Positions 1,606 through 53,549 of a stretch of DNA of 64,000 nt are shown piece after piece. The DNA comes from Cantharellus purpuraceus (Eukaryota; Basidiomycota; Agaricomycetes; Cantharellales; Hydnaceae). The notes below the pieces were generated by a model. It saw only the letters and a list, made by a program, of their open reading frames with translations. It did not search any database and was not told where the DNA came from. Both the position numbers and the translations under genes were made by a program. The stretch spans positions 310,001-374,000 of the forward strand of contig JALBUN010000001.1 of NCBI GenBank assembly GCA_025174535.1, given 5' to 3'. The number at the start of each line of letters is the position of its first letter. The first letter of the stretch is position 1.

Positions 1606-1965
1606 TGTCAGGGTTCAAATAAGTCATATTCTATTTTTAGTATTTTCTCTTGACACCCCTATCAGCGCAGCCTGTCAGGGTGCGTCTCCCCTATTTCATT
1701 GCCTATCACTTCCCCTATCTTTCCTCCCCTATCTTGGTTCTCCTATCCGTCTCCATCATTTAGTATAAAGACTCACCTTGGTGCAGTGTGATCCCCTCAG
1801 CTTGATCTCTGAGGATATCCGCTGTACCAGGTAAGTCCCATGTATTTATCAGAAACAGCTGTATAGACTGAGGATATCCGCTGTACCAGCTGGCATTATT
1901 TCTTATCAGCTCTCACTTATTGAGTATCTTGTTGTTGTGGCCTCGTCATCAGCGTCGCCCTCACA
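1606..1965 (+). repeat. 3' LTR of gypsy element A (360 bp)
   Basis: It starts TGTCAGGG and ends CCCTCACA, nearly inverted termini as expected of an LTR. It contains a TATA-like agtataaagac near 1762 and a duplicated gaggatatccgctgtaccag motif at about 1812 and 1872. A second copy with only a few differences (a 2-bp indel and about three substitutions) is the solo LTR at 8645-9006. Sequence of a different gypsy element begins immediately afterwards, so element A appears to have inserted into, or next to, the older element B. Confidence 0.9.
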
Positions 1966-2034
1966 GTGTTCCCACCACTGCTCCACTTTCTATTCGACTT
2001 CTGCTCGTCACTACACCCCAGCAAAGCAATTATT

Positions 2035-2940
2035 TACATTATTCAAATAACAGTACAGACTTCTCTGGGTCTGTACTTGCCAAGGTGGGCATTAAAGTAT
2101 CACCTCCTGAGCAATACACAGGAGGTGCAGATCTCGAAGAGTTCAAGATCTTTGTAGCAAGCATGCTACGTTGGCTGAAGATGAATAATCTCCTAGGGCC
2201 ATCAAGTACAAAGTTTCAGCTATTGTACTTAGGCACTCGCCTTAAAGGTGAGGCCCAGGAATGGTTCTACAGGAATGTAGAACACTATGACAGGGCAGTC
2301 AAGACTGGACCCTGGAAACTGCAATCCTTGGATTGCAGTGTAGATTCCTACACACCCTGACACATCATCATGTGTCAAATAAATTTGACTCTGTAATACA
2401 GGGTCAAAGGACCATTCATGAATTGATGAATGACCTAGATAAGTATGCAGGTCGCATGATAATGCTGCCGGACACGTACACATACAGGAAGAGGTTTGTA
2501 ACCACAATGCATGAACCTCTGAGACAAGAAGTCCTCAAGAAGGGCTTCAATGCTGAATTCAGCAGTATTGAGCAGTTGTACGAAACTGCTCAAATGATAG
2601 AGGAAGCAATGCAATACCACCACAGTACGTGATGCCTGGAGAATGCAACTAATATGTCCTCCTCAACCCATAGACCAGTAGTCAATAGAACTACTGGTAT
2701 GATGAATATGGGGAGTTGACCCATGCCCCAAGGACATGTGTATATGGCTCCCAACACATACTCACAACAAGCAAGTGCATCAAGGTTGGAAGCTCCAGGT
2801 CCAATTCCAATAATTACCTTTTCAAGGGTAATTATCAATCAAAACCACCAGCACACGCAAGTGGTGATCGATCAAACAACATTACTAGTAAGATTGTGTG
2901 CTACAAATGTGGCCAGACAGGTCACATGTGACCTAGCTGC
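2035..2940 (+). pseudogene. Gypsy element B: decayed gag with zinc knuckle
   Basis: Gag of an old Ty3/gypsy element. The first frame encodes a retrotransposon gag core (VSPPEQYTGG, FVASMLRWL, YLGTRLKGEAQEWFY) to a stop at 2360. The frame shifts near 2335-2345 and the gag continues to a stop at 2630-2632 (TIHELMNDLDKYAGRM, FNAEFSSIEQLYETAQMIEEAM). A third frame holds the zinc knuckle CYKCGQTGHM near 2901-2931, which normally packages RNA; the following residues are stopped. Several frameshifts and stops make this non-functional. The sequence is packed with short inverted repeats (see findings). Confidence 0.85.
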
Positions 2941-3345
2941 CCCAAATTAAAGGGCAATGTAAGGTCAGCTGTGGTCCAAAAGGACGTGTCCTCACACATA
3001 GTGGAGGATAAGGTAGATGGATTCTCCCTGATAGAGGGAGAACATAAAGAAGCAATGGATGATCCCAAGGACCATCTAGATGAAAAAATATCAGTTATAG
3101 AAGTGGCTGACAAATGGGATGAAGAGGTCATCCCATATGAATGGGACAACCAAGATGATGCCCCTGAAAGGGAGGCTACACCAATGTATTGCTCTAATGC
3201 GATATGAATTCAACCCAATGATCAAATTCCACCGAGACACACCTATGCAGTGCGTTTCTGTAGTGCAACAAGATTCCTGAGAAGCAGGGAATCACAACAG
3301 CTGCATATAGCTGCTGTCAGTGTCAACAGATTGGCTGAACCTATG

Positions 3346-3908
3346 ACGCTTGTTTGGAATCATGTCAGTATACAATATTCTGATGTATATGAGATATACA
3401 TCAGAATTTCAATGATACATAAAGCCAGGGAGTTACAATTTGGATATCTTGAAAGATTTCGGATGTGTGAAATTTTCATAAATATAAACATATATTCTAT
3501 ATTTTAATAAACTTTAAAAGATGAGATATTTGGTTGAGATGAACATAATCATTTACATGGATATAATAGGAATGTATGTATTAATATAATTGGTATTATA
3601 TAGAGTATTTAGATATACAAATACCAGGTGGGGATTAAAGATAGTTCAAATTATGTTACAAGTATTGTATAAGAAAGAATCAATGATATTTGGATGTTCC
3701 CTCAAGAGAGTTGCCACCACTAAATGGGGAAAAAACAGTTATTTTTGAGAATTATGCCAAAATATCAAAATATGTTTTAATCTAGTATACTGTGTAAAAT
3801 TTGAGAATCATGTTGAAATATGAAAATAAGTTTGAATTGAAGTGTATTGTGTAAAATTTGAGGAAAATAGGTTGTATATATGTATTTGTTGTATTTCTGA
3901 ACAAGCGT
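3346..3908 (+). mobile_element. MITE-like element, copy 1 (563 bp)
   Basis: AT-rich, non-coding element with terminal inverted repeats ACGCTTGTT at 3346 and AACAAGCGT ending at 3908. It is flanked by a direct repeat ctatg (3341-3345 and 3909-3913), read as a target-site duplication. It sits between the gag and protease parts of gypsy element B. An inverted copy of identical length is at 5739-6301. It encodes no protein, so it would be non-autonomous. The transposase superfamily cannot be named from termini this short. Confidence 0.75.
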
Positions 3909-3984
3909 CTATGTATAATCATAGGAGCTGACAGAAGTCAACAGCACAACCAGATAGACTGCACATAGACAATAAAACAATCTC

Positions 3985-4865
3985 TGAATATTGGGAGATT
4001 GGTGGAACACTAGCCCACTGTCTATTAGACAGTGGAAGCGAGGGGATAATGATATCCCCTGAATTCACACATGTGACAGGTATGAAACTTTGCACTAGAG
4101 CAACCCATCACACTGCAATTAGTGTGCATTGGGAGCAGGAGTACCATAAATTATGGTACTCACACTACCATAAAATTTGGTAGTCAGGACATTGAAGAAT
4201 ATTTCGATGTCACCAACATTGAGTATTATGATGTAATACTCGGTACCCCATTCCTACAAAAGCTAGGAATATGCCTGGACTTTAATGGCCCAGGCCAAAT
4301 CATGATAGGAACTGAAGAAGTCCCCACCAACAAAGAGCAGAATACTGATGCTCTTCATACCCCATCATGGGGTATAAACTCAATGTGAAGAAGCAGTATT
4401 GGTGTGAATAAATGACACCAAGGGGGTAACTCTAAACACAAGCTACCCACAACACAGTCCTTCCTAAAAGACAGACTAGAGTCAGTAAAGGACCCCCCAA
4501 TGGAGAATCCAAATAAGAGCACAATGTGAATAGCTTCATCTCATGAAGGATCAACCACTTACACGGCTGGTCAGATCCCTCAGTTGAGGGATCAATGGAA
4601 AGAAAAGTATGCTGACCTATTTGGCAGCATACCCTTAGAACTTCCCCCATTTAGGGAAGTCAACCGCAAGATTAATCTCATGGATCCTGACAAGCAAATA
4701 CATCATTGCTTGCCTAAGTGTCCAGAGCACTACCAAGCAGAACTTTCAGAGAAAGTTCTGTGATACACCACTGCTAAGACTGTATGGGAACCACCTTTTC
4801 CCTATCAAATTCCATTTATGCAGCACCAATGTGCTATTCTTTGCTTTTCCATTCCTAAATATCAG
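3985..4865 (+). pseudogene. Gypsy element B: protease and start of reverse transcriptase
   Basis: Continuation of element B after the MITE. Near 4012-4085 one frame encodes the aspartic protease active site (HCLLDSGSEGIMISPEF). After a frameshift, 4122-4388 encodes the rest (TTIKFGSQDIEEYFDV, YYDVILGTPFLQKLGICLDF), the usual retropepsin DVILGTPFL block. Fragments of the RT N-terminus follow near 4655-4760 (LMDPDKQIHHCLPKCPEHY) with a stop at about 4760. The RT is interrupted near 4865, and its palm catalytic region is absent from the window. Confidence 0.8.
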
Positions 4866-5738
4866 CATATATTTGGTGCTTGTACCTGGAATGGACTTAT
4901 TCAAATATTCTCTATTTTTCCATATTTTTCCGGGAATATTCCATGCAGAACTCGGCCCAGAAGCATTTATTTTTGCTGTGCTACAGTTGTGCACCCATAG
5001 GCGCCCACAAACCTTCGCACAGCCGGCTATCCACCTTTGGACCAGGCATTCGGCCTGAATTCCAGCTCAGATGTCTCTGATCAATAAATATTCTCTAACT
5101 TGACAACCACAGCCTCTCAGGGCACTATTTTCCATGCAGATCATCACATGAGATGTGGCTATCCATGGCTGTCCAAACCAGTGCAGAAAACAGGGTGGAC
5201 ACCCTTCTTTTTGTCTGATCAGTGCCTAGTTCAGGGATCAAATCAGGTGATTGCCTTGGAATATTCTTAGCTGTTTCCTTCTATTATTAGATAGAACTTT
5301 CCAGAACCATTATTCAGCTCCTGATCAGTGTTAGTCCAGTGATCAGAACCTGTGATTGGCTTGGAATATTCTACCCCTTTCTTCCACCTTCCACAACCTT
5401 CCAGTAGCTTCCATCTATTAATAGTAGAATATTCCAGAAGCATTAGTCAGCCCCTGTAAATACAATATATAAGGAGGCCATTCTGCCTCTGAAATAGGAA
5501 CATATCCATCATATTCTACCCATCTTCTGCACACCAGTGTGACTAGAGTGACATACAGTGTCATCCTCTATCTCAGTAACTGTTGATTACCAGTTCAAGC
5601 AACCAAAGTACAAATGTTAAATCGTTTCTGGAGTTGTGCTGCAGCAGGGTTTGATATTCTTCTCAGCTGTTCATTCACAGAATTGTGGTGATTTAGAGTT
5701 TGCCCTAACACCATAATTTTGCAGGTTCCAAAACAAAG
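4866..5738. other. Non-coding, LTR-like insertion between RT fragments
   Basis: No convincing gene. The stretch has an imperfect tandem repeat of roughly 110-125 bp (about 5217-5318 and 5323-5450). The repeats share gatcagt..gtccagtgatca and ttggaatattc motifs and runs of ttccag. A TATA-like box (tatataagg, about 5467) and a CA-rich tail resemble the promoter half of an LTR. It replaces the reverse-transcriptase core of element B and abuts MITE copy 2. I could not fix its ends. Confidence 0.4.
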
Positions 5739-6301
5739 ACACTTGTTCAGAAATACAACAAATATGTATATACAACCTATTTTCCTCAAATTTTACACAA
5801 CACACTTAGATTAAAACTTATTTTCATATTTCAACATGACTCTCAAATTTTACACAATATACTAGATTAAAACATATTTTGATATTTTGGCATAATTCTC
5901 AAAAATAATTCTTTTTTCTCCATTTAGTGGTGGCAACTCTCTTGAGGGAACATCCAAATATCATTGATTCTTTCTTATACAATACTTGTAACATAATTTG
6001 AACTATCTTTAATCCCCACCTGGTATTTGTATATCTAAATACTCTATATAATACCAATTATATTAATACATACATTCCTATTATATCCATGTAAATAATT
6101 GTGTTCATCTCAACCAAATATCTTATCTTTTAAAGTTTATTAAAATATAGAATATATGTTTATATTTATGAAAATTTCACACATCCGAAATCTTTTAAGA
6201 TATCCAAATTGTAACTCCCTGGCTTTATGTATCATTGAAATTCTGATGTATATCTCATATACATCAGAATATTGTATACTGACATGATTCCGAACGAGTG
6301 T
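5739..6301 (-). mobile_element. MITE-like element, copy 2 (563 bp, inverted)
   Basis: Reverse-complement copy of 3346-3908 with the same length and matching termini (ACACTTGTT at 5739; reverse complement ACACTCGTT at 6301). Matches run along the whole length with scattered substitutions and small indels. The flanking bases (caaag and ccttg) are not a direct repeat, so this copy may have reached its place by rearrangement rather than simple insertion. The pair brackets 1.8 kb in opposite orientation and could fold into a long stem. Confidence 0.75.
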
Positions 6302-6369
6302 CCTTGGTCACCTAATAGATGACCAAGGTGTGCATGCAGACACTGATAAAATGCAGTGAATACAAGAGT

Positions 6370-8071
6370 GGAGACGACCTAGGTCATACCACAAAGTCCA
6401 ATGTTTTCTTGGACTAGTGCAGTATCTGGTGCACTATATGCCAGACATAACTGCATACACAACCCCTTTATCGGGTTGTGCTCATAATAATCGTCCATTC
6501 TTATGGATGCCATTGCTAGAGAAATGCTTCAAAAGCATCAAGCTCCTAGCATGTAGGGCTCCAATATTGAAGCCCATCAATGTCAATAACCCCAATACTA
6601 TTTGGGTTATTACTGACAGCTCCAAAACTGGAGTCGGAGCCTCTATGGACAAGGAAAAGATTGGCAGACCTGTCAGCCTGCTGGATTCCTATCCAAGAAA
6701 TTTAGTGCTGCACAACAGCACTATAAGACCCACGAGCACGAGACTATAGCTGTGCTCGAAGCTCTAATGAGATGGGAAGATAAGCTACTAGGACAAAAGT
6801 TCATCCTAGTAACTGACCACAAAGGTCTTGAATACTTCAAGACCCAAAAGAACCTGTCTCCTAGATAGATTAGGTGGTGGGAGTTCTTATCCCATTTCAA
6901 CGTTACTACCCTGCATATAGATGGGGTAGAGAACAAAGTAGCGGATTGTCTATCACACTACTATGCTGATGACTCCCCAACAGAGAGTCATCCCAACTAC
7001 ATCTACATAAACGCAGATGAACGTCTTGACCCTGAAGGAGAACTGCTCTCCATAAAACAATTTGTCAAGATCAGGACAGCAGCAGTCACCTGAAGGTGAC
7101 TGCTTGAGAAAAAGGAAAACAGAGCGCTAGAAGCTGAAGCACTCAATATTCAAACAGAATCATTGAATGATGATTCTAATTCCTCTAAAGAAATAGAGGA
7201 TGTTGGAGTGATGTCATCAGATGATGACAGAACACCATTGTGATCCCATGTTGAGCATGGGATCAACCTTGTGCAGATTGTATGAGGTACATATAGAAAG
7301 GATACTGTCCTTTCTAAGGTGCTGGAAGCACCTAAAGAACACACACGATTTGGTGTGCATGATGGTCTAATATGGACCAAAAAGATATACAAATGTGATA
7401 TTGTCTGTATACCCTGCTCAGCGTTCCTGAAGGGGAGGAGGGGCACACAAGTGTCCAATGGTGGAGTTCACACTAAACTCCAACATAAGCTCAAAACAGG
7501 GTTTACTCCATTTGAGCTTAACCACAGGTATATGCCTAGAATAGGCATGCCCATTAACAATGACACCAAGTTCAAGGGTGTCAAACAATTCACACAGCAG
7601 GCTCAAACAAACCTGCTAGCAGCACATGACACAATTATAGAAAGTTGCATCATTCAGACATTTCATGCCAATAAGAAACATCGGGAAGGTCCAACCTTCC
7701 AGAGAGGTGACAAAGTCTACCTCTCAACAAAAAACTTGACTCTACCTAAGGGTAGAACCAGCAAACTAGTGCCCAGGTATATTGGGCCCTATAAAATAAT
7801 CGAAGCCCATAATAAAGCTTCAACAGTGACACTGGAACTGCCACCAGAACTGACTAGTAGGCACATTACACCTACATTCCACGTCAGCCTCATTCGACCA
7901 TATGTGCCAAATGATGAGGTGAGATTCCTGAAACAGGAAGCAAAGTCATTTTATGACTTTGGGAACGATGACGAGCAGGAGTGGCTTGTCAATGAAATCA
8001 ACAAGATGACCATATGGACACCAACTCATTGGAACAGCTTCATAAGGAGCTGTATGATTGAAAAGTACTGA
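6370..8071 (+). pseudogene. Gypsy element B: RT end, RNase H and integrase C-terminus
   Basis: The remaining pol of element B. It holds the end of the RT connection (QYLVHYMPDITAYTTPLSGC) and then RNase H motifs split between two frames. These are VITDSSKTGVGASM near 6604 and, in another frame, the region around 6700-6950 (HETIAVLEALMRWEDKLLGQ, LVTDHKGLEYFKTQ, then a stop). The ORF at 7319-8071 encodes an integrase remnant from the zinc-finger side (IVCIPCSAFLKGRRG) joined directly to the C-terminal region (TGFTPFELNHRY, GPYKIIEAHNKAS, FHVSLIRPY). Most of the integrase catalytic core is therefore deleted. The product would be inactive. Confidence 0.85.
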
Positions 8072-8088
8072 ATGAGATCATGTCTCAT

Positions 8089-8644
8089 TCAAAAAGAGGA
8101 GGGTGTAAGTACCCAAGGTACTTACTTACTATAACATATAAGTGCAATTAATGTATGCAGTATTCCCTTAAGGAATGCTGCCCTCTTGGTAGATATATGC
8201 ACCCATAGGGTGTATATGTATAGTTATTATGTAAGCCAGTGGACCCAGTACATGTGTGGGTCCACATGTAGTAGACAGAACTTAGACACTACCACACTGT
8301 ACAACACATCGTCCAACCAATACACTTGGTTGAGTTCTGTGCAATGGTGTGAACTAAGACACCCATTAACAAGCCAGCTGATGAAGCATGTGAAGTTGCA
8401 CTACTAATGGGGAAATCATGGAGAAACAAAATGACAGATAGGGGTAATCTTGGTAAGAATAGGAGACAATGAGTAATAAAAGAACCAGAAATAGAACAAG
8501 GATGAGTAAATCATGTATGAATGAATTAAAAGATGAAACAGGGGTGAGTCATATAAAAGAACAATAGAAATGTCCACCAATACCATCTTCCCTATGACTC
8601 TGAAGGTAAGTTGACCCTGAGTCACATGAGGACTTCAGTCAGTG
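8089..8644 (+). repeat. Polypurine tract and probable degenerate 3' LTR of element B
   Basis: A purine run (aaaaagaggaggg, about 8091-8103) ends at a TGTAAGTACCC start at 8104, the arrangement expected where a 3' LTR begins. The LTR end is not recognisable. The stretch ends at the solo LTR inserted at 8645. No gene is seen here. Confidence 0.5.
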
Positions 8645-9006
8645 TGTCAGGGTTCAAATAAGTCATATTCTATTTTTAGTATTTTCTCTTGACACCCCTA
8701 TCAGTGCAGCCTGTCAGGGTGCGTCTCCCCTATTTCATTGCCCCTATCACTTCCCCTATCTTTCCTCCCCTATCTTGGTTCTCCTATCCATCTCCATCAT
8801 TTAGTATAAAGACTCACCTTGGTGCAGTGTGATCCCCTCAGCTTGATCTCTGAGGATATCCGCTGTACCAGGTAAGTCCCATGTATTTATCAGAAACAGC
8901 TGTATAGACTGAGGATATCCGCTGTACCAGCTGGCATTATTTCTTATCGGCTCTCACTTATTGAGTATCTTGTTGTTGTGGCCTCGTCATCAGCGTCGCC
9001 CTCACA
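8645..9006 (+). repeat. Solo LTR of the element-A family, TSD cagtg
   Basis: A 362-bp copy of the 1606-1965 LTR (TGTCAGGG...CCCTCACA) is flanked by the perfect 5-bp direct repeat cagtg (8640-8644 and 9007-9011). There is no polypurine tract before it and no internal region after it. It is therefore a solo LTR left by recombination between the two LTRs of a full insertion. Confidence 0.92.
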
Positions 9007-9077
9007 CAGTGACCACAACAAATACTCCTTATTGTCTTGGTGATCCGTCTCCATATGGTATCCCATTCCAAGGGTAT

Positions 9078-9460: not shown

Positions 9461-9540
9461 GTGGTGTTACACCCTGTAACACCAAGTCCAAACTCCAGAC
9501 CTCCATCTCCTTCATCTCCATCCCCATCAACTCCACCTCC

Positions 9541-9795
9541 ATCATCTCCACCTCCATCATCTCCACCTCCATCATCTCCACCTCCATCATCTCCACCTCC
9601 ATCATCTCCACCTCCATCATCTCCACCTCCATCATCTCCACCTCCATCATCTCCACCTCCATCATCTCCACCTCCATCATCTCCACCTCCATCATCTCCA
9701 CCTCCATCATCTCCACCTCCATCATCTCCACCTCCATCATCTCCACCTCCATCATCTCCACCTCCATCATCTCCACCTCCATCATCTCCACCTCC
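9541..9795. repeat. Perfect 15-bp minisatellite, 17 copies
   Basis: The unit atcatctccacctcc is repeated 17 times without a single mismatch, with degenerate copies on the left from about 9505. Because the unit is 15 bp and lacks stops in several frames, both strands stay open: SSPPP on plus, GGGDD and MMEVE on minus. These ORFs are products of the repeat, not evidence of genes. Perfect identity points to very recent expansion. Confidence 0.95.
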
Positions 9796-9929
9796 ATCAA
9801 CCCTGATTTGACTGACGATCCGAGAGGGCACAACACACAAGTTGAAGCCAAGTCCACTCAATCTGACTCGATAGTATTGCTCCCACCCTGTCTTCGGTTG
9901 AACTGGAACAGTAAAGTCCCATCTCCCTC

Positions 9930-20160: not shown

Positions 20161-23100
20161 ATGTCGGAACAAGTGAACGTATGTAGTCCTGCAGTACACA
20201 TCCTATCGCTGATTCTCAGACGCAGTTTAGCTCGCCTCTGACTTGCCAGAGGCCGAATCCCAGCACCGTAACTCTGAACGTCAACGGTACCGATCACGCT
20301 TTCATCCCCTTACGTTAGGCACGGGCTTTGCTCCGTCCGCTTCTGATCAAGAAAAGGTTCGTGACCTTGCAGTACACATCTGATGGCTTATACCAAATCA
20401 TGTTTATCGTTAGGCTGAGTCCCAGAATCATAACTTCGAAGGTCTGTGCGATCAGGATTCGAGCTCATGTCGTCGTTAAATGCATCCTGTGTTTATAGAC
20501 ACCCATACACCTCCGTCCGATGAGATCATTACCGAATCTGATAAAGTCGAAATCAACGACAGCCCGTATGCGTTACATTATCGCCCTGACGCACCCATCT
20601 GGTCCCTCTACTTGAAGGAAACGGAGGCTGAGGACAGGGAATTGGTGATGCAATGGCAGAATGGTCTTGACACTCTTCTCGTATTCGTCAGTTCGGATTT
20701 TTCTCGATACCGGGTCCAGGTCTGACATGCCTCAGGCCGGCCTGTTCGCTGCAATTCTGACAGCTTTCCTCATCGAAAGCCGCAAGGGATTGCAGGCAGA
20801 TCCGCAAAGCGTATTATTGCAAGAGATCCTCTGTACTCTTCGGAACGAAATGAATGCGTCTACACCTTCCTTCTCTCCGCCCGCGTTGTCTTTGCATGTG
20901 AATTATCTATGGTTTATCAGCCTGACGTTCACCCTGATCGGTGCACTGGGTGGCGTTCTCGCCAAAGGTTGGCTTGCAAAGTATGCGCCGGCATCTCCTG
21001 GAGTGTCTTCGAGCGATGCGTGTGAACGTCATCTTCGCGCGATTGGGGCTTACAAGTGGCACTTCAGTGGGGTCATCAGTGGGATCCCATTCCTGATCCA
21101 GCTTGCCCTCTTCCTCTTCTTCGCAGGACTAGTCCTGTTCATCCTGGACAACAGCAGTGGAATTGGATATGCCATTCTCGTCTTGGTTGTCTTCACTGCT
21201 GTGATGTATATTTTGGGGACGGTCTCACCATGGTTCTCTCCAGGATGCCCGCTTCAGACAACAATGTCTGATTTTATACCGGGGATGGCAGCAATCACGC
21301 GATACAAGAAGGACCGTGCTTCGTCTTACGGAGTGGTAAACTCCGCTTCCAGCCAGCCTGTGTCATTCTGGGGCGCACTTGCGGATCTGCGTCGTAAGCC
21401 AGGGAAAACGGAACTCGAGATGACCATCCTTTCCTGGATCATTGCAAACTCCACTGTAGAGGATAACATCAAAGAGGCTGTCAGGGCTGTAGCCGGCATT
21501 CCTTCGACACACTTAAACGCATTGCGGGATGCGATGACCAAGTCGGGAGCTGTGCCAGTACTTTGCGAGAAGTTCTCGCGATGCTTCAAGTTGTCGCCGG
21601 GCCTCACGATGACTGCAGATGATGTGAATCTAGCCGAGGCTTATCTATACGCTCTGCTCCCTGTTGTGAACAATGACCGATGCCTGGAATTGTTGGGGAC
21701 GGGAGGACCGTTGCACAGGTGGGATCATTTGCAACCGTGCCTACAGTCGCTCGCGTTTTGTGTGCGAACTGAGATCTTACTGGGGGCCGGAAAAGACGAT
21801 CATCTAGAGGACTGGGAGGCAACGAAGAGGAGCTTGAGGAGTATGTGTCGGATGGGGTCACCTGGAAATTTGGTGAAGAGGATGATGGATGCGGCGACTC
21901 GGAGTATCGAGAGAGGGGGGAATCGCTTACAAAGAACGGGCACAATTTTACTGTCTTTACTCGCGAAAGTGGGCAAGCCCTCGCAGCAATTCGGATCACT
22001 AGTTCCTGGCAGCAACATGGACGGCCCGACAGGTTGGTCAGCGACGAATGAAGGGAATGCCATAGCCAAGCTTTGTGCGCTGCTGAAAGACAGGGATGCT
22101 GACGTTCGTGGTGCGGCTTCACTCGGACTTACCAAATTGGGGTATTATGGTGAGCGGTGGAAAAGATGTGTTAAGTGAGAATGACAAAACTGACAACCAA
22201 TCCAGGTGTATTCCATGATGCTATGAAAAGTGCTGGCCCTGACATCTGCGAGGTGTTGCAGGAGAGTGATCTTGATGTCCAATTGGATGGTGCACACACG
22301 ATTGTTAAAATGGCTGAGCAGCGTATGTGACTATGCTTACGAGGCTCGTTCTTTGAAGAGACTGATGTTGATTTCTAGCTATGTTCCATGACGCAGTGAA
22401 GGATGCTGTGCCTCACATCGTCGAGTTGCTCAAGGACAGTGACTGGAAAGTCCAAACTGCTGGTGAAGATGCGATTGAACAACTGGCTGAGCAACGTGTG
22501 TGATGACCTCACCACGATCCTCGGAGAAACTGATGTCCGTGTCTAGCTCCCTTTCATGATACGATTGTGGATGTCTTTCCTCAAATCATCTCGTTGCTCA
22601 AGGACAGTGACGAGGACATCCGATGTGCTGGTGCTCGTACAATCAGCAAACTGGCTCAGCAACGTATGTGATGGCCTTACCACTTTGTTTGACAAGACTT
22701 ATGTCTGTTTCTAGCGGCATTCCATGACATGATCAAGGGAACTGTTCCTCAGATCGTCGAGTTACTCAAGGACAAGGAGACAAGTGTCCAATGGGCCGGT
22801 TCAGATGCAATTGAGCAGCTAGCTGAGAAACGTATGGGATGGCGTTCACCACGTTCTTTGATGGGACTGATACTTTTTTCTAGCCTCACTTCATGGCACC
22901 ATCCAAGGTACTGTACCTCAGATCGTCGGGTTGCTCGAGGATAGTGAAGGGGGTGTCCGATCTGCTGGCTTACGTGCGATTGGCAAGCTGGCCAAGCAAC
23001 GTATGTGACGGCGGTCACCACGCTCTTTGATGAGACTGATGTCACTGTCTAGCCACATTCCATGACATGATCAGGGGTGCCATTTCTCAGATCGTCCAAT

Positions 23101-26100
23101 TACTCAAGGACAGCGACAGCGATGTCCGATGGGCTGGTGCCCATGCAATCGGGGTTCTTGCTGAGCAACGTATGTAGCAATACTCATCTGCTCTTTGACG
23201 AGACTCATGTCCGCTTCTAGCCTCATTCCATGACACGATCGCGGGTGTCGTTCCTCAGATCATTCATTTGCTCAAGGACAGTGACGGGCTTGTGCGGTCA
23301 GCTGGTGCACGTGCAGTTAGCGAACTGGCTCAGCAACGTATGTAATGGCCTTACCACACATCTTGACGAGACTTACCTCTAGTACTAGCCGGATTCCATG
23401 ACATGGTGAAGGGTGCCGTTCATCAGGTCCTCGAGTGGCTCAACAGTCACGCGTCTGACCGATCAAATGGTGTAGATGTAATTGTGAGACTGGCCAAACA
23501 ATGTTTGTGATGACTCACCACGCTCTCGACGAGACTGATGCCTCTATACAGCCACTTTCTCCAACGCATTCAAGTATGCTGTGCCTCGCCTCGTGGAGTT
23601 GCTCAAGGATAACTATCCACCTGTCCGATCGGCTGGTGCATGTGCAGTTGGTGAACTGGCTCGGCATTGTAAATATTTATAGTTACCATACTCTTTGACG
23701 AGACTGATGTTTGTTTCTAGCCCTTTTCCACGACACGATCATGGATGCTGTTCCCCAGATCGTCGAGTTGCTCAAGGACAGTGCAACCTATGTGCGAACG
23801 GCTGCTGCAAATGCAATTGGGAAATTAGCTGAGCAATGTGTGTGACGGCGCTCACCATGCTCGTCAACAAGACTAATGTTTGTTTCCAGCTCCATTCCAT
23901 GACATGGTCAAGGGTGCTGTTCCTCGGATCATCGAGTTGCTCCGGGATGATAATTCATATGTCCGCTCAGCTGCTAAAGATGCGATGGACATCCTTACCA
24001 GCCAAGGTAAGCGATACTTTTTCTATCCTAGATTAGTGTCACTTTGGTAGAATTTCAGTTGACATTTACTCGCAACTTGAGACACACATAGTCAATTTAC
24101 CTGCAAAGATCGTTGATGAAAACACTATTATCGCAAATGCAGCCACGACTGTATGTCAAGCAATTGCTCGACGATGTAGGCTTTACCTGTTCATTGAATA
24201 CTTATTCCCTTGCTCATGCACAATTTAGCCGATCCAGTCGCTTCGCTGCGGCGTGGCCTCTCGGTATTTCTTGTTCGATCCTCTTCTCAACTAGCGATTC
24301 CCCACCTGTCACAATCACATACAGAAGTCGTTCATGGTACGTTGCATTAATTGATCCATTGAACACCTGACGGCAATGTTCGCAAGAGAGTTTGCCTAGT
24401 AATCCTATACTGGCTGCGTGTTTAAATGTCATCAGTAATAACTGCGAACTTCGTTACAATGGTGTCCGATGCCTCTCCTTATTTGTTCGGTACGGTATGT
24501 AGCGCACAATTTGATCTCACACCAGCACATATCACCCTCTTTGAAGTGAGCAAAAACCCCGCCAATCTTCCCCACTTCTCGAAAAAGGTCATCGCCCAGC
24601 TCAAGTGCAACGTGTCAAGGGTACAAATGATTGCTACATTAGCTATGGGTGCATGGGCCCAATGCGGTTGAGTGACGGTGCTTATTGTTGTCGTTGTGCC
24701 ATAATACTGATGTCTGTTTACAGCCCCATTCCACAATACGATCAAGAGCGCTGTTTCTCTGATCATTCAGTTGCTCGTGCACCGAGACTGGGATGTCCAC
24801 CAAGCTGCTGTAGATGCAATCATCAAACTGGCTGAGCAACGTATTAGGTGACACTCACGATGCTCTGTTGCGAGACTAATGTCCATTTCTAGCCACGTTT
24901 GATGATACGATCAAGGATGCCATTCCTCTGATGGTCGACTTGCTCGAGGACTCTAACATCTACTCAGTCTTAGGTGCAATGGGGAGACTCGCTGAGCAAC
25001 GTGTGTAATAGTGCTCGCTACGCTCTTCGACGAGACTGATGTCTGTTTCTTTCCAGCCATATTCCATGACGCAATCATGGATGCTGTGCCTCGCATCGTG
25101 GAGTGGACCAAGGGTAGGGCCTCAGGTGTTCGATTGGCTGGTGCACGTGCAATTGGCGGAATGGCTAGTCAATGTATGTGATGACACGCACGGTCTATGA
25201 TGAGACCCATGTCCGTTTCTAGCCATGTTCCACGACACGATCCAGGGCGTCGTTCCTCGGATTATCGAGTTACTCGAGGACAGTGACTCACACGTGCGAT
25301 TTGTTGGCGCAGAGGCAATTGGTCAACTGGCTCAGGAAGGTATGTGATGGCATTCACCACGCTCTTTGGCAAGATTTATATCAGTTTGTAGACACATTCC
25401 ATGACACCATCAACGGTGCCGTTCCTCGGATCTTCGAATGTCTCAAGGACAGTGACAGCTTGGTCCAAGAGGCTGGTGCATGTGCAATTCGCATACTGGC
25501 TTGGCACCGTGTGTGATGGTGTTCACCACACTCTTTGACAAGACTTATGTCGTTTTCTAGCCATATTCCATCTTACGATCATGGATGCCTTCCCTCAGAT
25601 CATCGAGGCATTGCAGAACAGTCAGTTGAATGTCCGATGGGCCTCTGTAAATGCAATTAACGCACTGGTTGGGAAACGTATGCGACGACACTCAGGACGT
25701 TCTGTGACGAGACTGATATGCGTGTCTAGCCATGTTCCATGACATGATAAAGCAGGCTGTTCCTCAGATCGTCGAGTTACTCAAGGATAAGGAGAGCTTT
25801 GTCCGATCAAGTTGTGTACGTGTAATCGGTGAACTGGCTCAGCAGCGTATGTGATGACGCTCATCACGGTCTTTGACGAAATTGATGTTCATTTCTAGCC
25901 TCATTCCATGACACGATGAAGGGTGTTGTGCTTCAGCTCATAACGTGGCTCGAGAACAGTGAGGCAGATGTCCGATCGGCTGGGGCAGATACAATTGTGA
26001 AGCTGGCCGAGCAAGGCATATATTGTTGCTCACCACGCTCTTTGATGAACCTGATGTCGATTTCTAGACACATGGCATGACATGATCAAGGATGCCATTC

Positions 26101-27370
26101 CTCAGATCATCGAGTGGCTCAAGGACGGTGATAAGCTTGTCCGATTGGCTGGTGCACGTGCAATCAGGAAACTGGCTGATCAACGTATGTGATAGCGTTC
26201 GCGACACACTTTGACCAGACTGATATCCTCGTATAGCTACATGGCATGACATGATGAAGGCTACCGTTCCTCAGACCATCATATTGCTCAAAGACAGTAA
26301 TTCGGATATCCGATCAGCTTGTGCAGGTATAATTGATGCACTAGCACGACAGCGTATGTGATAGAGCCTGTCAATGCTCTTTCACCAGGTTGATGTCCAT
26401 ACCTAGCCCTATTCCATGACGTCATCGAGAGTGCTATTGATCCGATCCTCGAGTTGCCAAAGGACAGTGAGTCAGCTGTCCGATGGGCGGGTGGACAAGC
26501 AATCAAGACACTGGCTGAGCAACGTAAGTGGTGGCCATTCGCACTCTGTGACACGACTGATGCTTGTGTCTAGCCCTGTTCTATGACATGATGAAGGGCG
26601 CCGTTCCTCAGATCATCGAATTGTTCCGGGACAGTGATCCAGATGTCCGAGATGCTGGTACAGGCGTGATCCTCACATTGGCGGAGCGGAGCGGGGATGC
26701 TGGCCCATTCCTTGATACACTGCTTTTGTCTCTAATATCACTAATCAAGACCGGTCCTCCATTTGCCCAATCGAGTGCCATGGACTTACTTTTGGAACTG
26801 CCTGGTGATGGTAAGGGACTTCTCACTTATCGCACTATTGCTAATATGTTTGCCTTTAGCACTTGCCATCCTGATTAATAGCTTTACGGCCTCCGAACTT
26901 CTGACTGTTCTGAAATGCAAAGATCACATTGTGTCTGCCGCCGCCGCTCGCCTGTTTTGTGCGCTTACCACCCAGTGCCGCAGCAATCACTCGTTTTCCA
27001 CGTTTTCTGAAGCTATCTTGAGTGTCGTTTTGTATGCCTTCTCCTGTTTAGATCATGCGGACGTTGAATTTCAAGCATGTGGAACATCCATCCTCCATGT
27101 TTTGGTAGATCATGACGGTGTGCTGGCATTTCTGCATCTGTTTGTCGAATATTTACTTCTTTCCTAGGTTCTTTAGGGATATTGTTTCGGAAGTTGGTGC
27201 CATCCATGGATTTGTTCGAATGTTTGCGAATGATCTTTCTGCTGGTCAGCAGGAAAACTTGGTATATTGCTTACAGCAAGTCGGTCTTTTGGAGACCTTG
27301 TAAAGTTGGTCACATTTCTGTACATAGTTTCAAGAGCCGGGAACTCGTTGCCAATGTCCTTTTTTACTGA
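20161..27370 (+). CDS. DUF6535 membrane protein with about 27 single-exon HEAT-like repeats
   Basis: The gene starts at ATG 20161; exons 20161-20178, 20252-20356, 20414-20441, 20499-20686 and 20736-22149 encode the N-terminus. This has the DUF6535 signature (WSLYLKETEAEDRELVMQWQ, LLVF then AGLFAAILTAFLIESRKGLQ) and hydrophobic membrane segments (YLWFISLTFTLIGALGG, FLIQLALFLFFAGLVLFIL, AILVLVVFTAVMYILG). From 22206 every exon is one HEAT/armadillo-like repeat, consensus FHD.I...VP.IVELLKDSD..VR.AGA.AI..LAEQ. Most are exactly 117 nt and all end in phase 1. Four diverged exons (24059-24175, 24229-24336, 24387-24494, 24547-24666) join the two halves. All repeats are open, so the gene is probably functional, about 1,800 residues. 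The last exon's frame is uncertain (stop at 27303 or 27370). A membrane-anchored scaffold or sensor is my inference. Confidence 0.8.
22206..26810 (+). repeat. Tandem exon-plus-intron repeat array, period about 168 bp
   Basis: Exon starts in the first block are 22206, 22379, 22547, 22715, 22884, 23053, 23221, 23389, 23552, 23721 and 23890. In the second block they are 24724, 24893, 25057, 25223, 25392, 25561, 25730, 25899, 26068, 26237, 26407 and 26574. Steps are 163-170 bp, apart from the first step (173). Introns (about 48-56 nt) resemble each other: gtatgtgatgg..., caccacgctctttgacgaga, ctgatgtctgtttctag. So the duplicated unit is exon plus intron, not exon alone. One donor (26016) reads GC instead of GT. 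Confidence 0.9.
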
Positions 27371-28520: not shown

Positions 28521-29085
28521 CTATTGAGCCCATGTGTTTTCTGCAAGAGCGATGCCAAAGAATCGCAGTAAAGGCTGAAGCAGGATCAGCAGAATAGCAA
28601 TTGAGGTACTGAAATGGCAAGCTTCCAGTCTTCCCAGCTTCTGCTGCCTGCGCTGGTAGCGTTCATGCAAGGCACCCCTCCAAAAGCATGATGTCATAAA
28701 GTGCCCTAGACATTGCTTTCCTAACACGGCACCAAATCTAGCCAAAAGACTGCTTGTGTATGCACCTCCCTGGATCCATATGAATATAGAGCTCGGCGCT
28801 TTCCAGACGGGAAGAGAACCTTTGTGAGGGGAGCATCACATTGTCGATTCTGGACATTTGGAAATGAATGTGTGGTGTCGCTTTCGCTCGGGCTTAAACC
28901 CGACTGCATATCCACGATGAAGGCTGAGCTGACAGCCGAGAACAGAACAGACCAGCCTGAATAATATGTTCATGATGCAAGAATATAGCACATACGAATA
29001 TAAGGTACCCATATCACCGTTCTGCCTTGCTAGAAAGTTGTCAGTGTCGTTTAGCCACGCGTTCATGACCAGAAATGCGAGAGCG
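28521..29085 (-). pseudogene. DUF6535 protein fragment
   Basis: Minus-strand remnants of a DUF6535 gene. WLNDTDNFLARQNGDMG occurs near 29055. After an intron-like gap, the AGLF...AFIVDMQSGLSPSESD segment (28880-28970) is split by a few inserted bases. Then LLARFGAVLGKQCLGHFMTS and the block containing RYQRRQQKLGRLEACHF run to a stop at 28521. The latter matches the intact motif in the DUF6535 gene at 45.3-46.4 kb (RCQRRQQKLDGLDTWHF). It is truncated and frameshifted, hence a pseudogene. Confidence 0.75.
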
Positions 29086-43313: not shown

Positions 43314-46300
43314 CTACATGTCTCTCCGGGAAGCATCCAGCAATTCACGATTTTGCTTGCATAGTGCAGGGATCCCCTGGTACACCCGTGACTTGCCTTC
43401 TGGGTGGTGGGCATCGTCCTGTTCGTGAGCGCACTTTTCTTCATCAAGTATACGGCAAACTTGTTCGACCAGCGCGATTAAGGACTCTTCCCTACCATTG
43501 AATCGCCTCCTTGCATATGCAGTGAGAGACTGAAGGGCGCCAAGGTAACATACACCAGAAACTTTCACCCAATTGTCCTCCATCATTCTTTCGACCTGAA
43601 AGAACGGGCGATCGTCGCCCGAAGCATCAATGAGTGCAAAGATATGCGCAACATGCAAAGCATATTCATCTAAGTTCTCATTTCTCAAAGATGACGGCGT
43701 GTCTGCAATAACAAGACAGTTCTTAAAATGGCCACTGTGACAGAGCTGAAATTGCCAGACAGCCTCTTGTGAAAGGGTGGAGAGCAACTCCAGGTAGGGG
43801 ATAACCTGAAGCCAAGAGGAGAATGAGATAGCCTCGAACGAGTTGTTGTCAAGTAAATCCTGCCGTGTAGCAGGAGCTCGACTCAGAACCGCTGATGCAA
43901 GCGCTCTTGAGAAGCGTTCTCGGAATGATTCGTCATCCTGGCCCATTGAAGCCACTACTGTGGGAATTGCGCAAGCCGCACGCAAGGCTATATCGTATGT
44001 GATTTCCTGGCCCATGAAACGAATCGTCATTTCAATGTAGCGGCGCTTCAGATCCTGGGTGTTAGGTGAGCCATGCAGCCGCTCCAACACTTCAAATGAA
44101 TTTTCAATCGCGTCATACTATGTGCTGTTACAGAGCCGCACGTAGTAATCCACCAGCCAGTCAAACTGCGCCTGTGAGTAGCAATGGCTTACGTCCCAAA
44201 TCGTGTCACAGTTAGAATTCATGAGACGGAGCAGGATGGAAACACTTTTGGATCGGACTTGTTCTTCGTCTTTGGTGCCAGGATGTTCCTCAAGAAGACG
44301 GAAACAGACTTTGAGAAACATTTCGCATGTGCAACGATCCCCGAAATAAGCACCGCATTTGTCAAACCATTGGAGTAATGGGTGGATGAGCTGCAACGCA
44401 TTCTGGTGCCATTCAGGGCTTAAAAAATCCCCAAAAAGCACAGCTAGTGTGCGATTCATCACTGATCCTCGCAGTGTTCCGATGGCTCCACTGCAGAATT
44501 ATGAAGTCAATAAGCCATGGATAGTAAGGGGGACTTACCTTTTGTCAAGCCTGGCCAAATGCTGTTGATTGATTGGCAGGCCAGTTAGCTGGCCTGCTAG
44601 TAGCAGACAGTCCGCCACTAGACGGGCGGGGGACTCTGGCTTAAGACATATGCCGATGAAACAAATCACAAAGGTGACAAATTTTGGGTCAAGATCATCC
44701 CGTAGCAGAAGGTACGTGAACATATGTGCCATCCACATACAGTCAGAAGATCCAAGGGAAGGGAGGTGTAGACTGACAGGGTGACCGAGCGCAGAGCAAG
44801 TGACGAGAAAGTCGTGATCTGGGCCATGTGGTACTTGCAATGACGATGCCGGGACCATATATCCCCGTTTGTGTATATATAGAACGAGTTGCCCATGTCT
44901 CGTTTAGCATAAAAGTGGGACATTGCTTTCAAATTTGCCACCGCCCGTGGTCGTGCGAAGGGAAGAATCTGTTGGGTAGGATCGAAGCACGCATAGAAGC
45001 GACCGGTGAATCGGTCATGTCAGTTACGCCCTCCACAGCTGGCCACTCAATTGCTGGTATCATTCCTGCTACAGCAGCAATGATGTCTGCATCCGTAGAT
45101 GTGTCGACAATCCACTGGACGGCACTGAATTGGACCGCATATACTTGAGACAGCTGCACGTCTGACTCCAGAAACCCCAAATCCAACTCTTCTAGACATG
45201 CTGGTTGTTCCACAGCAGGTCCTAAAGCTAAATCTCCTAAGCTGGCAGTGACTCCAAGCTTCCGGCAGCTTTTGGGTCATTGGTCGACGACCCAACTGTG
45301 TGCTATCCGCGAGAAATACGCGACAAAGAGCGTAATCGAATTGGCGATCAGTGCCTGTGTAGCATATAAGGCACGTCCAAAGACTCGCGCATGCGATCCA
45401 GGAAGCCCGCCCAGAACCATGTCTTTCGTAGCACCTTCCCGAAGGCAGTCATGTCTTCGAGGGCATTCTTAATCATGGTGGACACAGTTAGCATGACTCG
45501 TTGAGGGACGGTGGAGATAGGGGTCTGAAATGGATAGTCAGGTGATTTTAACGACGCGACAAAGGTGCAAAAAAAGAAGATAACTCCAAATGCTGTAGTT
45601 CCCATAGTGAGACTTGCGATGGTATGATGTTGAATCCAGACGTTTGCGGACACCGAGATGCCAAGAAACAACAGTGATAGCTGGAGAAAAACCCGCAAGA
45701 TAGTGATAACGGCGCTAAAATGCCACGTGTCCAGTCCGTCCAACTTCTGCTGCCTTCTCTGACAGCGTTCATGCAAAGTGCCCTGGCCGAACCGTGAGAT
45801 TCGGAAGTGACCTAGCCACTGCTTTACCATCACTGCACCAAAGGTAGCGAGTAGACTAGTAGACAAGCTCGTGTAAGCAAGTGTCTGGATCCACATTTCT
45901 TTATTGCTTGGTCCTGTACTGGGGAAAAGAGTGGGCCCTTGCTCCGGGAACGTGCCGTTGTGCAATGTGTTAACCAGTATCATGAGAATGGTGTTTGTCG
46001 TGCCGCTTTTATTGGGACTCAAGATCGACTCCATGTTGATAATGAATGCGGTACTGATAGAAGAGAAAAGACCAGCCTAGATATCCAACAAATACCTTCC
46101 GTTGAGCCCAGGGCAAAGGAGGTGCAAAGGGAATAATGCAGTACATACGGCTATAAGGAGGGCGTCCATATCACCATTATACTTCCTGACGAATTCATCA
46201 TCGAATTGCTTTGCCACACGCTCATATATTGACCAGAAGGCGGGGCTAATGTTCTTACCAGACTGTGGAGAAATGTCCGAATCTTTCCTGGTGTTCGCGA

Positions 46301-50120: not shown

Positions 50121-51450
50121 CTAGACCAAGTTTGGTGCAGTGCACGCCATGCGATGCAAGCGGTAATCCTTTTGTAAGTGCGTCCGCCACCATATCCTTT
50201 GTCGGTATGTACTCAATTTGAAGTTCGCCCGTAGCGACCTTCTCGCAAACATAGTGGTGTTGGGCGTCTGTGTGCTTTGAGCGGTTATGGAATACCGGGT
50301 TCTCGGTGAGTGATATTGCTCCCTGATTGTCTGTGAAAATTCTGATGAATTGTATGTTTGCACCCAGTTCCTTTAGGATTCAAAGGATCCATGTTGCCTC
50401 CCTTGCTGCCTGCGACATAGCCATGTACTCCACTTCTAAGGTAGAGAGCGCCATAACCTTCTGTTTCTTTGCTGACCATGAAACTGCACCAGTGCTGATC
50501 ATGAATGCATAGGCACCCATTGACTTTCTATCATCTCGATCACTGGCATAGTCAGCGTCTGAGTATGCACAGAGCATGAGGTTGCCTCCTAGCCTCAAAG
50601 GTACATCCTTTGTCCCTTTCAGGTAACGTAACACTTGTTTAGCTGCCTGCCAGTGTGCCTGCCCTGGGTTTGCCATATACTTGCATAGCATGCTGAGTGC
50701 AAATGCAATGTCTGGTCGAGTTGCTACCATGATGTATAGCAGTGCTCCTACCAGCTCCCTGTAAGGTACGCGTGCCATTTCCTCATGTTCAGCGTCACTT
50801 TGTGGACTCATCTCAGCTGTCAGGTACGTTCCTGGGGCAAATGGCATTGCGATCGGCATGGCATCTTCAAGCGAGAACCTGTGCAGCAGACCGTTGACAA
50901 ATGACGTCTGTGACAGCGCTATCGTTCGGCTCGCATGATTGCATTTGAAAGCGATCCCCAGCGTCCAGGTAAGCTCCCCCTCGCTTGATATGCCATACCT
51001 CTCAGAGAACTGACGTTTGAGCTCTAGGAGCTTGTCCTTGGGTCCCGCGCAAGTTGCATTGTCAACCCAGAAGACTGCAACAGCAGATGAGCCATCCTCC
51101 CATGTCTTTCGGAATGCACTCAGATCTGAAGTGAGTTTCTTCCAGCCAATCTTTGCCATAAATTCTGACTTCTCCTCCTCCCAATAGTGCCCTCCCTGAA
51201 CCGTTCCATACAGTGGCTTCAACAGCTGCCATACCAGCATTGGGTCCGTTGGGTGTTCAAAACCTGGCGGGGGCTTCATGTAGATGGTCTCATGAAGTGG
51301 GCGGTGCAGGTAAGTGGAAGTAACGTCAAACTGACGTATCGCCGTGTTCTGACTTGCCACTGCTGCTAGAACAATCTGCAGCATCTCAAAACGCATTACC
51401 GTCGCACAACTCTGTGCAGGGTCAAAATGAAGGCCAGGAATCTGTGTAAA
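50121..51450 (-). pseudogene. Copia reverse transcriptase and RNase H
   Basis: RT from about 51450: VVLAAVA..., IRQFDVTSTYLHRPLHETIY with the first catalytic Asp, then MKPPPGFEHP and LLKPLYGTVQGG. The second catalytic site reads VFWVDNATCAG, where copia RTs have VDD. RNase H has ADYASDRDDRKSMGAYAF, then TLEVEYMAMSQAAREATWIL, an in-frame TGA at 50378-50380, and IRIFTDNQGAISLTENPVFH and DMVADALTKGLP to the end at 50121. A frameshift separates it from the integrase frame near 51400-51454. It would not make active enzyme. Confidence 0.9.
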
Positions 51451-51453
51451 TCC

Positions 51454-52869: not shown

Positions 52870-53544
52870 TCAATGTAGGTCCATCCATGTGATCTCAGTG
52901 GGTGCCGTGGCTGCCAGTAGCCACTCACTATTCAGCCACTTCGCTAGTTGGGAGTTGTCAGACTCAGTGAATGCCAGGTTTGCAGTCCCATTGGTCTGTG
53001 GCTTCATGACTCTCAGCCGCACCGGGTAGACCTGCTCCATTACTGGTATGTCAATAGTGTTTCCTCCCGGTCCGCACAGCTTGCAGCTTGACTGATTGAA
53101 TGCCACAGTATATCCCTTCTGTGTCAGCTGGCATACAGACAGCAATCTCGCCATGATGTCGGATACCCAGGACACATTGTGCAGCTCACCAAATGCCTCA
53201 CCGCCATCCTTCAGCTGGATCGCATAGCGTATGGTTCCAGATCCCATCGCCTGCACCTGACCCTTTGCGGTGGTGATTTGGTGCGGCACACTAAATGGTG
53301 CGTAGTCTTGGAGATCCTCTTGGCATGGTGTGTAGTGACCTGATGCCCCTGAGTCCAGGTAGTACATGGTATTGCCATCGCTTCCACTTGCCTTTCCGTT
53401 CAGCACCGTAAACATGCGTCCGACTGGCGCTTGTGTGCCTGCTTTGGCATTCGCATTGTTCTTCTTTGGCTTCATGCAATCACGCACCCAGTGCCCAGCT
53501 ACTCCGCAGTTATGGCATTTCCCTTTTCTCTTTGTATCCACACC
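52870..53544 (-). pseudogene. Copia zinc knuckle and protease
   Basis: Starts with KRKGKCHNCGVAGHWVRDC (a CCHC knuckle) and continues into the aspartic protease, MYYLDSGASGHYTP with the DSGA active site. It ends at a TGA just before the integrase frame. The upstream continuation into gag is interrupted by the solo LTR at 53550. Confidence 0.9.
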
Positions 53545-53549
53545 TTTTC

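What the first reader, a model, noticed from the sequence alone, without database searches (positions are those of the whole stretch)
22206..26810. HEAT-repeat gene built from about 27 one-repeat exons, nearly all exactly 117 nt and phase 1
Seen: 20 of 22 regular repeat exons are exactly 117 nt (others 114 and 108). Four diverged middle exons are 117, 108, 108 and 120 nt. Every intron is phase 1, no exon has a stop, and the introns resemble each other, so the unit copied is exon plus intron (about 168 bp). Symmetric 1-1 exons can be lost or gained without frameshift. Inference: a modular repeat domain able to change length between strains, fused to a DUF6535 membrane domain. That layout resembles expandable recognition receptors, although no immune function is shown.
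Basis: partly seen in the sequence, partly recalled or inferred. Interest (0 to 1): 0.88.

Follow-up and report, generated by a model that had tools for sequence, protein, structure and literature searches.

The report
Mushroom gene with swappable HEAT-repeat exons
A mushroom-type fungus carries a family of membrane-anchored proteins whose long repeat arrays are built from one tiny exon per repeat and vary most on the face that grips partners in related repeat proteins, which makes them candidates for the poorly understood self/non-self recognition of mushrooms.

Summary
From 22206 to 26523 there are 22 regular one-repeat exons, 20 of them exactly 117 nt, plus four diverged middle exons and a 23rd unit in a longer exon, all in one phase-1, stop-free frame fused to a DUF6535 membrane domain. 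The gene belongs to a family in its own genome: 13 distinct array loci with 9 to 39 units. Paralogs about 96% alike differ by whole exon+intron blocks; between strains this is untested. The DUF6535 exon is conserved (dN/dS 0.19-0.26 in 5 of 7 gene pairs) while the repeats of L014-L023 evolve at about 1. The most variable repeat positions include 5 of the 6 randomised in the HEAT-like binder library alphaRep. There, amino-acid change outruns synonymous change in two between-gene comparisons and within L010, but not within L009 or L016 nor in the pooled intact set. Best reading: a NOD-less, membrane-anchored recognition receptor family that works like fungal NLRs but is not one. No expression, ligand or phenotype was seen. 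The window's own array is old and shows no recent unit copying.

The parts
20499..20686 (+). N-terminal coding exon (start of DUF6535); upstream first exon(s) not settled
   Evidence: open frame joined by a 49-nt GTCAGT..CAG intron
20736..22149 (+). large exon: DUF6535 transmembrane domain plus helical linker
   Evidence: PF20153 E 1.7e-34; hydrophobic peaks; dN/dS 0.19 against L009
22206..24006 (+). array A: 11 one-repeat HEAT exons (10 of 117 nt, one of 114) with introns of 49-56 nt
   Evidence: Pfam HEAT E 2.2e-43 on 1063 aa of the spliced protein
24059..24666 (+). spacer: four diverged exons (117, 108, 108, 120 nt)
   Evidence: open spliced frame; related spacer in 9 of the other 12 analysed array loci
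24724..26523 (+). array B: 11 one-repeat HEAT exons (10 of 117 nt, one of 108); GC donor at 26016
26574..26810 (+). exon with the last HEAT unit (26574-26690) and the start of the C-terminal cap
26860..27303 (+). C-terminal cap, about two exons; last exon 1 nt shorter than in L009, L010, L023; exact splice sites not settled
   Evidence: 75%, 76% and 70% DNA identity to L009, L010 and L023

Best explanation
The gene encodes a membrane-anchored receptor-like protein: a conserved DUF6535 transmembrane domain and helical linker (anchor and probable output part), then two HEAT solenoid arrays separated by a spacer, then a cap. Each regular HEAT unit is one 117-nt phase 1-1 exon with its own short intron, so unequal exchange between units adds or removes whole repeats in frame. 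The inner face of the arrays diverges while fold and membrane domain are conserved, giving a family of binders of different reach and specificity. Shown: gene anatomy by sequence, family, whole-unit differences and array exchange between paralogs, stronger constraint on DUF6535 than on the repeats, variation on the alphaRep-equivalent face. Inferred: that this face binds a variable ligand (non-self or pathogen-derived) and that binding signals through DUF6535, for example as a cell-death or incompatibility response.
For: Family in its own genome (66 DNA matches; 132 exon-level DUF6535 matches). Thirteen distinct array loci of 9-39 units, six of them with every unit open. L010 versus L013: array A 12 of 12 units colinear; array B 12 versus 6 units, five of the extra ones best matching L013 units 15-17 again; within L010 units 15/18/21 and 16/19/22 are 92-97% alike. 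L009 units 6-7 (array A) are 94 and 96% alike to units 15-16 (array B). DUF6535 exon dN/dS 0.26 (L026-L023), 0.22 (L009-L010), 0.19 (WIN-L009), 0.19 (WIN-L010), 0.24 (WIN-L023) against 1.00 for the units of L014-L023 (L014 is a near-identical copy of L026). The eight most variable positions in 101 training units (1, 12, 22, 23, 26, 30, 34, 37) hold 5 of 6 alphaRep randomised positions, hypergeometric P 6e-4. At the six alphaRep positions pN/pS is 2.04 (CI 1.45-2.83) for L014-L023, 13 pairs, and 2.27 against introns; 1.60 (1.05-2.55) for L010-L013, 22 pairs; 1.64 (1.09-2.45) within L010, 11 pairs. At the eight training positions the ratio is 1.46-1.66 in four between-gene comparisons, lower CI bound 0.99 to 1.24. 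P0001 of Mycena albidolilacea has DUF6535, two regular arrays of about 39-aa units and a spacer.
Against: Selection is not uniform: the alphaRep-position ratio is 0.54 within L009, 1.00 within L016, and 1.11 (CI 0.91-1.35) in the pooled intact set. DUF6535 dN/dS is 0.45 for L010-L013 and 0.75 for L022-L023, where L022 has a stop. Window units average 46% amino-acid identity, far below the 85% used for high internal conservation in fungal NLRs. L013 has two units without an open model, so part of L010-L013 may be decay. No expression, ligand, topology or phenotype. The DUF6535 model is poor (pLDDT 68) with no PDB match at E 0.001 or better. Relaxed constraint would also bring dN/dS near 1, though the conserved core positions stay at 0.36-0.71 of pS.
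Confidence: 0.5

Rival explanations
1. A scaffold or transport protein (like PP2A-A, importin-alpha or Vac8) anchored by DUF6535, in which unit number drifts neutrally by unequal exchange and the surface is under relaxed constraint; no recognition of non-self.
For: Among the 60 of 122 solved sequences shown, designed alphaReps, PP2A-A and importin-alpha prevail; pooled intact pN/pS at the binding face is 1.11 with a CI that includes 1.
Against: Many paralogs with 9-39 units; ratio 1.6-2.0 in two between-gene comparisons; of 8 relatives examined only P0001 keeps regular, similar units, unlike a conserved housekeeping scaffold.
Confidence: 0.27
2. Mostly a decaying, self-duplicating repeat family: one or a few functional members and many dying copies, whose diversity reflects loss of constraint.
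For: L012 lacks residues 64-378 of the DUF6535 exon, and L011, whose array is a near-identical copy of L010's, matches only residues 379-472; L017, L018, L019, L020 show no DUF6535 exon in the fetched stretch; 7 of 13 loci have at least two units without an open model.
Against: Six loci (WIN, L009, L010, L014, L016, L023) have every unit open and DUF6535 dN/dS is 0.19-0.26 in 5 of 7 gene pairs.
Confidence: 0.15
3. The exon modularity serves alternative splicing: skipping symmetric exons gives many array lengths from one gene.
For: The array exons join in phase 1 and 144 of 169 introns carry an in-frame stop within the first four codons, so only whole-exon choices keep the frame.
Against: No transcript data; most donors follow one pattern (201 of 254 open models begin GTAT).
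Confidence: 0.08

Closest known systems
Fungal NLRs with variable repeats (HET-D/HET-E HNWD genes; N-NACHT/HEAT NLRs)
   Same: gene family, modular superstructure repeats, repeat exchange, number change, variation on the binding face (PMC4986451, PMC12222747, PMC12258605: passages seen)
   Different: no NACHT or NB-ARC found; transmembrane DUF6535 instead; repeats much less alike than 85%; one intron per repeat
DUF6535 proteins (PF20153)
   Same: N-terminal domain over the Pfam cut-off
   Different: 25 of 27 hits and 8 of 15 list DUF6535 without a HEAT domain
Mycena albidolilacea armadillo-type protein P0001
   Same: DUF6535, linker, array A, spacer, array B, cap; units of about 39 aa; 34% identity over 92%
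   Different: its own unit consensus and unit numbers (14 and 10); genomic exons not seen
alphaRep artificial HEAT-like binders
   Same: hypervariable positions fall on the equivalent of the randomised positions (PMC3754942, passages)
   Different: designed, shorter repeat, soluble
One-exon-per-repeat receptors of animals (LRR exons of NLRP genes; recalled, from no call)
   Same: equal-length symmetric exons, number varies among paralogs
   Different: different repeat fold, kingdom and anchor

Membership tests
Fungal NLR (STAND receptor) | NACHT or NB-ARC nucleotide-binding domain | tested here: not met
   none among the 25 of 29 Pfam families shown for 1063 aa of the spliced protein (DUF6535 to spacer), nor among the 25 of 43 shown for P0001; array B and cap of the window protein were not scanned
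Fungal NLR (STAND receptor) | C-terminal superstructure-forming repeats | tested here: met
   HEAT E 2.2e-43
Fungal NLR with high internal conservation | repeats over 85% identical within a gene | tested here: not met
   mean unit identity 0.42-0.59 in six genes, 0.46 in the window gene; threshold from PMC4986451 (passage)
Fungal NLR with diversifying repeats | excess amino-acid change at binding-face positions | tested here: inconclusive
   CI above 1 in 3 of 5 comparisons, 0.54 and 1.00 in the other two, pooled intact set 1.11 with CI 0.91-1.35
DUF6535 (PF20153) | score over the curated cut-off 23.9 | tested here: met
   119.7 bits
HEAT repeat protein | Pfam HEAT over cut-off | tested here: met
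   142.5 bits against 23.5
Basidiomycete somatic incompatibility gene | allelic difference triggers rejection | not testable with these tools
   needs strains and fusion assays
Alternatively spliced diversity gene | isoforms with different exon sets | not testable with these tools
   no RNA data

The most novel reading that the evidence does not exclude
DUF6535-HEAT genes are a NOD-less, membrane-anchored class of polymorphic non-self receptors of mushrooms, in which one-exon repeats are shuffled between arrays and genes (and perhaps skipped in splicing) to make new binding faces; they include genes behind somatic incompatibility or antiviral or antibacterial recognition in Agaricomycetes.
Probability: 0.27. 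Interest if true: 0.87.

Novelty: new variant of a known kind. Interest (0 to 1): 0.62.

Why it matters
A 2021 paper on somatic incompatibility in basidiomycetes says that its genetics remains unclear and its mechanisms completely unknown (PMC8229728, passage seen). A family with a conserved membrane part and a recognition-like part that gains, loses and exchanges units is a concrete, testable candidate set. It would also show that fungi built expandable recognition proteins without the nucleotide-binding switch of NLRs. DUF6535 itself has almost no literature in the held library: one paper for 'DUF6535' and the same one for 'PF20153', where it is a line in an expression table.

Tried and rejected
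DUF6535 fold: an AlphaFold2 model of the large exon (26-row alignment A1) reached pLDDT 68. Of 830 PDB matches at E up to 10, none had E of 0.001 or better by the tool's count; the 50 shown are mostly designed armadillo proteins, importins and catenins with query TM-scores of 0.18-0.30 and probably reflect the helical linker. No fold-based function is claimed.

Pfam on ten other window ORFs gave only DUF6535 and retroelement domains; six of the ten gave nothing. In the listings I saw no title or abstract start about DUF6535-HEAT genes or one exon per repeat in fungi; those papers were not read apart from the passages cited, and most subscription papers are not in that library. A sharp selection claim for all genes was rejected because L009 and L016 do not show it. 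The first counts of broken units (19 with a stop and 7 without a model of 280) named the wrong units in part, because exons such as 105 or 150 nt were missed; one search replaced them (19 of 280 without an open model). Its exon lengths are multiples of 3 by construction, so they are no independent test of phase. It chose a 126-nt model for window exon 25899-26015 to avoid the GC donor; I keep 117 nt. L022 joins an L014-like stretch to an L023-like one; this may be real or a misassembly. L019's 18 units lie in two groups and may be two genes. Repeat number between strains could not be tested: I found no other strain of this fungus in the collections used.
Full report
Where it is. The window is bases 310001-374000 of contig C1 of a 40.15-Mb, 50-contig genome. 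The named protein hits to its DUF6535 part come from Agaricomycetes such as Mycena, Marasmius, Coprinopsis and Rhizoctonia, with one filed under Acaulospora. The organism itself was not identified.

Observation. The array is as described. Between 22206 and 26523 lie 22 regular repeat exons in two runs of 11, 20 of them 117 nt, one 114 and one 108. Four middle exons are 117, 108, 108 and 120 nt. A 23rd unit sits inside a 237-nt exon. The joined frame is open with each array junction in phase 1. The 21 introns between regular units average 0.679 pairwise identity and the 23 unit exons 0.639; codon positions 1, 2 and 3 of the 117-nt units agree at 0.64, 0.69 and 0.60, the order expected for coding sequence. 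If retained, 18 of 20 introns tested in this gene, and 151 of 169 over eight loci, give an in-frame stop, 144 of 169 within four codons. One donor is GC (26016) and two acceptors read AAG (before 24387 and 24547); these are the weak spots.

The whole gene. A large exon (20736-22149) encodes DUF6535 (E 1.7e-34) with strong hydrophobic segments, then a helical linker. The array follows, then a C-terminal cap that aligns to L009, L010 and L023 at 75, 76 and 70% DNA identity. At the start of the last exon the window gene is 1 nt shorter than those three, which shifts about 45 residues; this may be real or an assembly error and was left as it is. The first exon(s) upstream of 20499 were not settled.

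Family in the same genome. The array DNA matches 66 places and the DUF6535 profile 132 places at E up to 0.001, with 150 of 184 candidates scored; both are exon-level counts and lower bounds. I fetched 20 stretches. With the window that makes 21. Six were set aside because their arrays are near-identical copies of others (L011, L015, L021, L024, L026, L027; L011 differs from L010 upstream, in the DUF6535 exon). L025 is degenerate and L028 has no unit hit. Thirteen array loci remain, with 9, 11, 11, 18, 18, 18, 23, 23, 24, 25, 26, 35 and 39 units, 280 in all. 261 of 280 have an open unit model, of which 224 are 117 nt. A related spacer is found in 9 of the other 12 loci; L018, L019 and L020 gave no match.

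Whole-unit change. L010 and L013 are 96% alike over their longest aligned stretch (5978 columns). Their A arrays are colinear, 12 of 12 units. Array B has 12 units in L010 and 6 in L013; L010 units 18 and 19 best match L013 units 15 and 16, units 21, 22 and 23 match 15, 16 and 17, and unit 20 has no close partner (0.82). Within L010 units 15/18/21 and 16/19/22 are 92-97% alike. L009 units 6-7 in array A and 15-16 in array B are 94 and 96% alike: exchange across the spacer. L018 passes from a unit like A11 of L010 straight to units like B16 onwards, with no spacer match; 4 of its 11 units have no open model. In the window gene no pair of units reaches 90%, and its units are as close to those of L009 (0.73) as to each other (0.72). 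So the window gene shows the layout but not recent turnover; L014, L019, L020 and L023 also have no pair at 90%.

Constraint differs by domain. DUF6535 exon dN/dS is 0.26 for L026-L023, 0.22 for L009-L010, 0.19 for WIN-L009, 0.19 for WIN-L010 and 0.24 for WIN-L023, but 0.45 for L010-L013 and 0.75 for L022-L023, where L022 has one stop and the linker part aligns badly. Unit exons give 1.00 for L014-L023 (18 pairs; L014 is a near-identical copy of L026), 0.93 for L010-L013 (22 pairs), and 0.76 to 1.04 in the six other between-gene comparisons; closest units within one gene give 0.44-0.78 in eight genes. In these counts only 117-nt units without a stop were used, and best matches outside 78-99.9% identity (60-99.9% within genes) were dropped.

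Which positions vary. In 101 units of WIN, L009, L016, L019 and L020, none of them used in the tests, the eight most variable of 38 positions are 1, 12, 22, 23, 26, 30, 34 and 37. At these, pN over pS of all positions is 1.46 (CI 0.99-2.22) for L010-L013, 1.48 (1.00-2.45) for L010-L012, 1.58 (1.24-1.97) for L014-L023 and 1.66 (1.11-2.41) for L022-L023. Aligning the array to alphaRep chains in the PDB places the six randomised alphaRep positions (18, 19, 22, 23, 26, 30; PMC3754942, passages) at unit positions 22, 23, 26, 27, 30 and 34; I read this mapping by eye from the printed alignments. Five of six coincide (P 6e-4). In the alphaRep complex described there, all 19 interface residues of A3 are at randomised positions, and 11 of 22 of its binder bA3-2.

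At the six alphaRep positions (identical pairs and pairs over 20% apart dropped) pN/pS is 2.04 (CI 1.45-2.83; 2.27 against introns) for L014-L023, 1.60 (1.05-2.55; 1.58 against introns) for L010-L013, and 1.64 (1.09-2.45; 1.33 against introns, CI 0.95-1.75) within L010. Against: 0.54 within L009, 1.00 within L016, and 1.11 (0.91-1.35) in the pooled intact set of 62 pairs. In that pooled set the six positions still change faster than random sets of six (permutation P 0.006) and the conserved positions are at 0.49. Counting methods on related pairs are not site models, and the bootstrap treats pairs as independent.

Relatives. Three protein searches (each scored about 7,990 candidates, the most it passes on) gave 27, 9 and 15 hits. 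P0001 (Mycena albidolilacea, 1679 aa) matches over 92% at 34% and has two arrays of about 39-aa units (spacing 36-40) separated by a spacer, 14 and 10 units; one of its 25 profile hits, near residue 23, is not part of an array; mean unit identity 0.51 with that hit included. P0029, filed as Acaulospora colombiana, has a similar two-array plan with irregular units and may be a contaminant contig. DUF6535 with irregular HEAT solenoids occurs in Mycena venus, M. olivaceomarginata, Coprinopsis sp. (two) and Candolleomyces aberdarensis. HEAT is also joined to a Tle1-like phospholipase domain in Mycena pura P0030. So the domain pair is wider than the regular array; of 8 relatives examined, only P0001 has regular, mutually similar units.

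Reading. I take the protein as a membrane-anchored binder whose recognition part is renewed by exchange of exon-sized modules. The symmetric exon is not needed for frame keeping as such, since an intronless repeat whose length is a multiple of three would do the same; the paper on the WD-repeat NLR genes of Podospora does not hold the word intron (PMC12222747). What the introns add is open: more length for recombination, or exon skipping. Known fungal recognition genes with modular repeats are NLRs; here no nucleotide-binding domain was found, so it works like them but is not filed with them. HEAT repeats are described as a major C-terminal type of fungal NLRs (PMC12258605, passages).

Limits. 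No RNA, no strains, no ligand, no topology, no phenotype. Near-identical copies on small contigs and inverted copies on C20 and C37 may be assembly effects; they were set aside before counting.

None of these required a change of odds.

Noticed in passing
window 45351-46235, minus strand: A second DUF6535 gene (Pfam E 3e-31 on ORF 45351-46076; profile match 45639-46235), 18 kb from the array gene.
   Followed up: partly
window 28530-28805, minus strand: Weak DUF6535 match (E 1.7e-6), possibly a gene remnant just downstream on the other strand.
   Followed up: no
window 1606-9019: Direct repeats (1606-1978 and 8645-9019, 97-99% alike, 7.04 kb apart) with a Tf2-1-like SH3 domain between them: probably a young LTR retrotransposon.
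   Followed up: partly
window 50383-53706, minus strand: Copia-type retroelement pieces (RVT_2, integrase core, Pol_BBD, zinc knuckle) in three adjoining ORFs.
   Followed up: no
window 9501-9799: About 20 copies of a 15-bp tandem repeat (97% matches) beside the LTR element.
   Followed up: no
L023 and L024 (C20), L014 and L027 (C37): Array genes present as near-identical inverted copies on one contig, and as further near-identical copies on C35 and near the end of C1; palindromes, haplotypes or assembly effects.
   Followed up: partly
L011 (C25) against L010 (C36): Arrays 99.98% alike over 7.9 kb, but L011 matches only residues 379-472 of the DUF6535 exon.
   Followed up: no
L019 and L020 (contig C10): HEAT-unit arrays with no DUF6535 exon found in the fetched stretch; L020 has a simple tandem repeat upstream.
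   Followed up: partly
P0030: In Mycena pura a HEAT array is joined to a Tle1-like phospholipase domain, hinting at exchange of the N-terminal part.
   Followed up: partly
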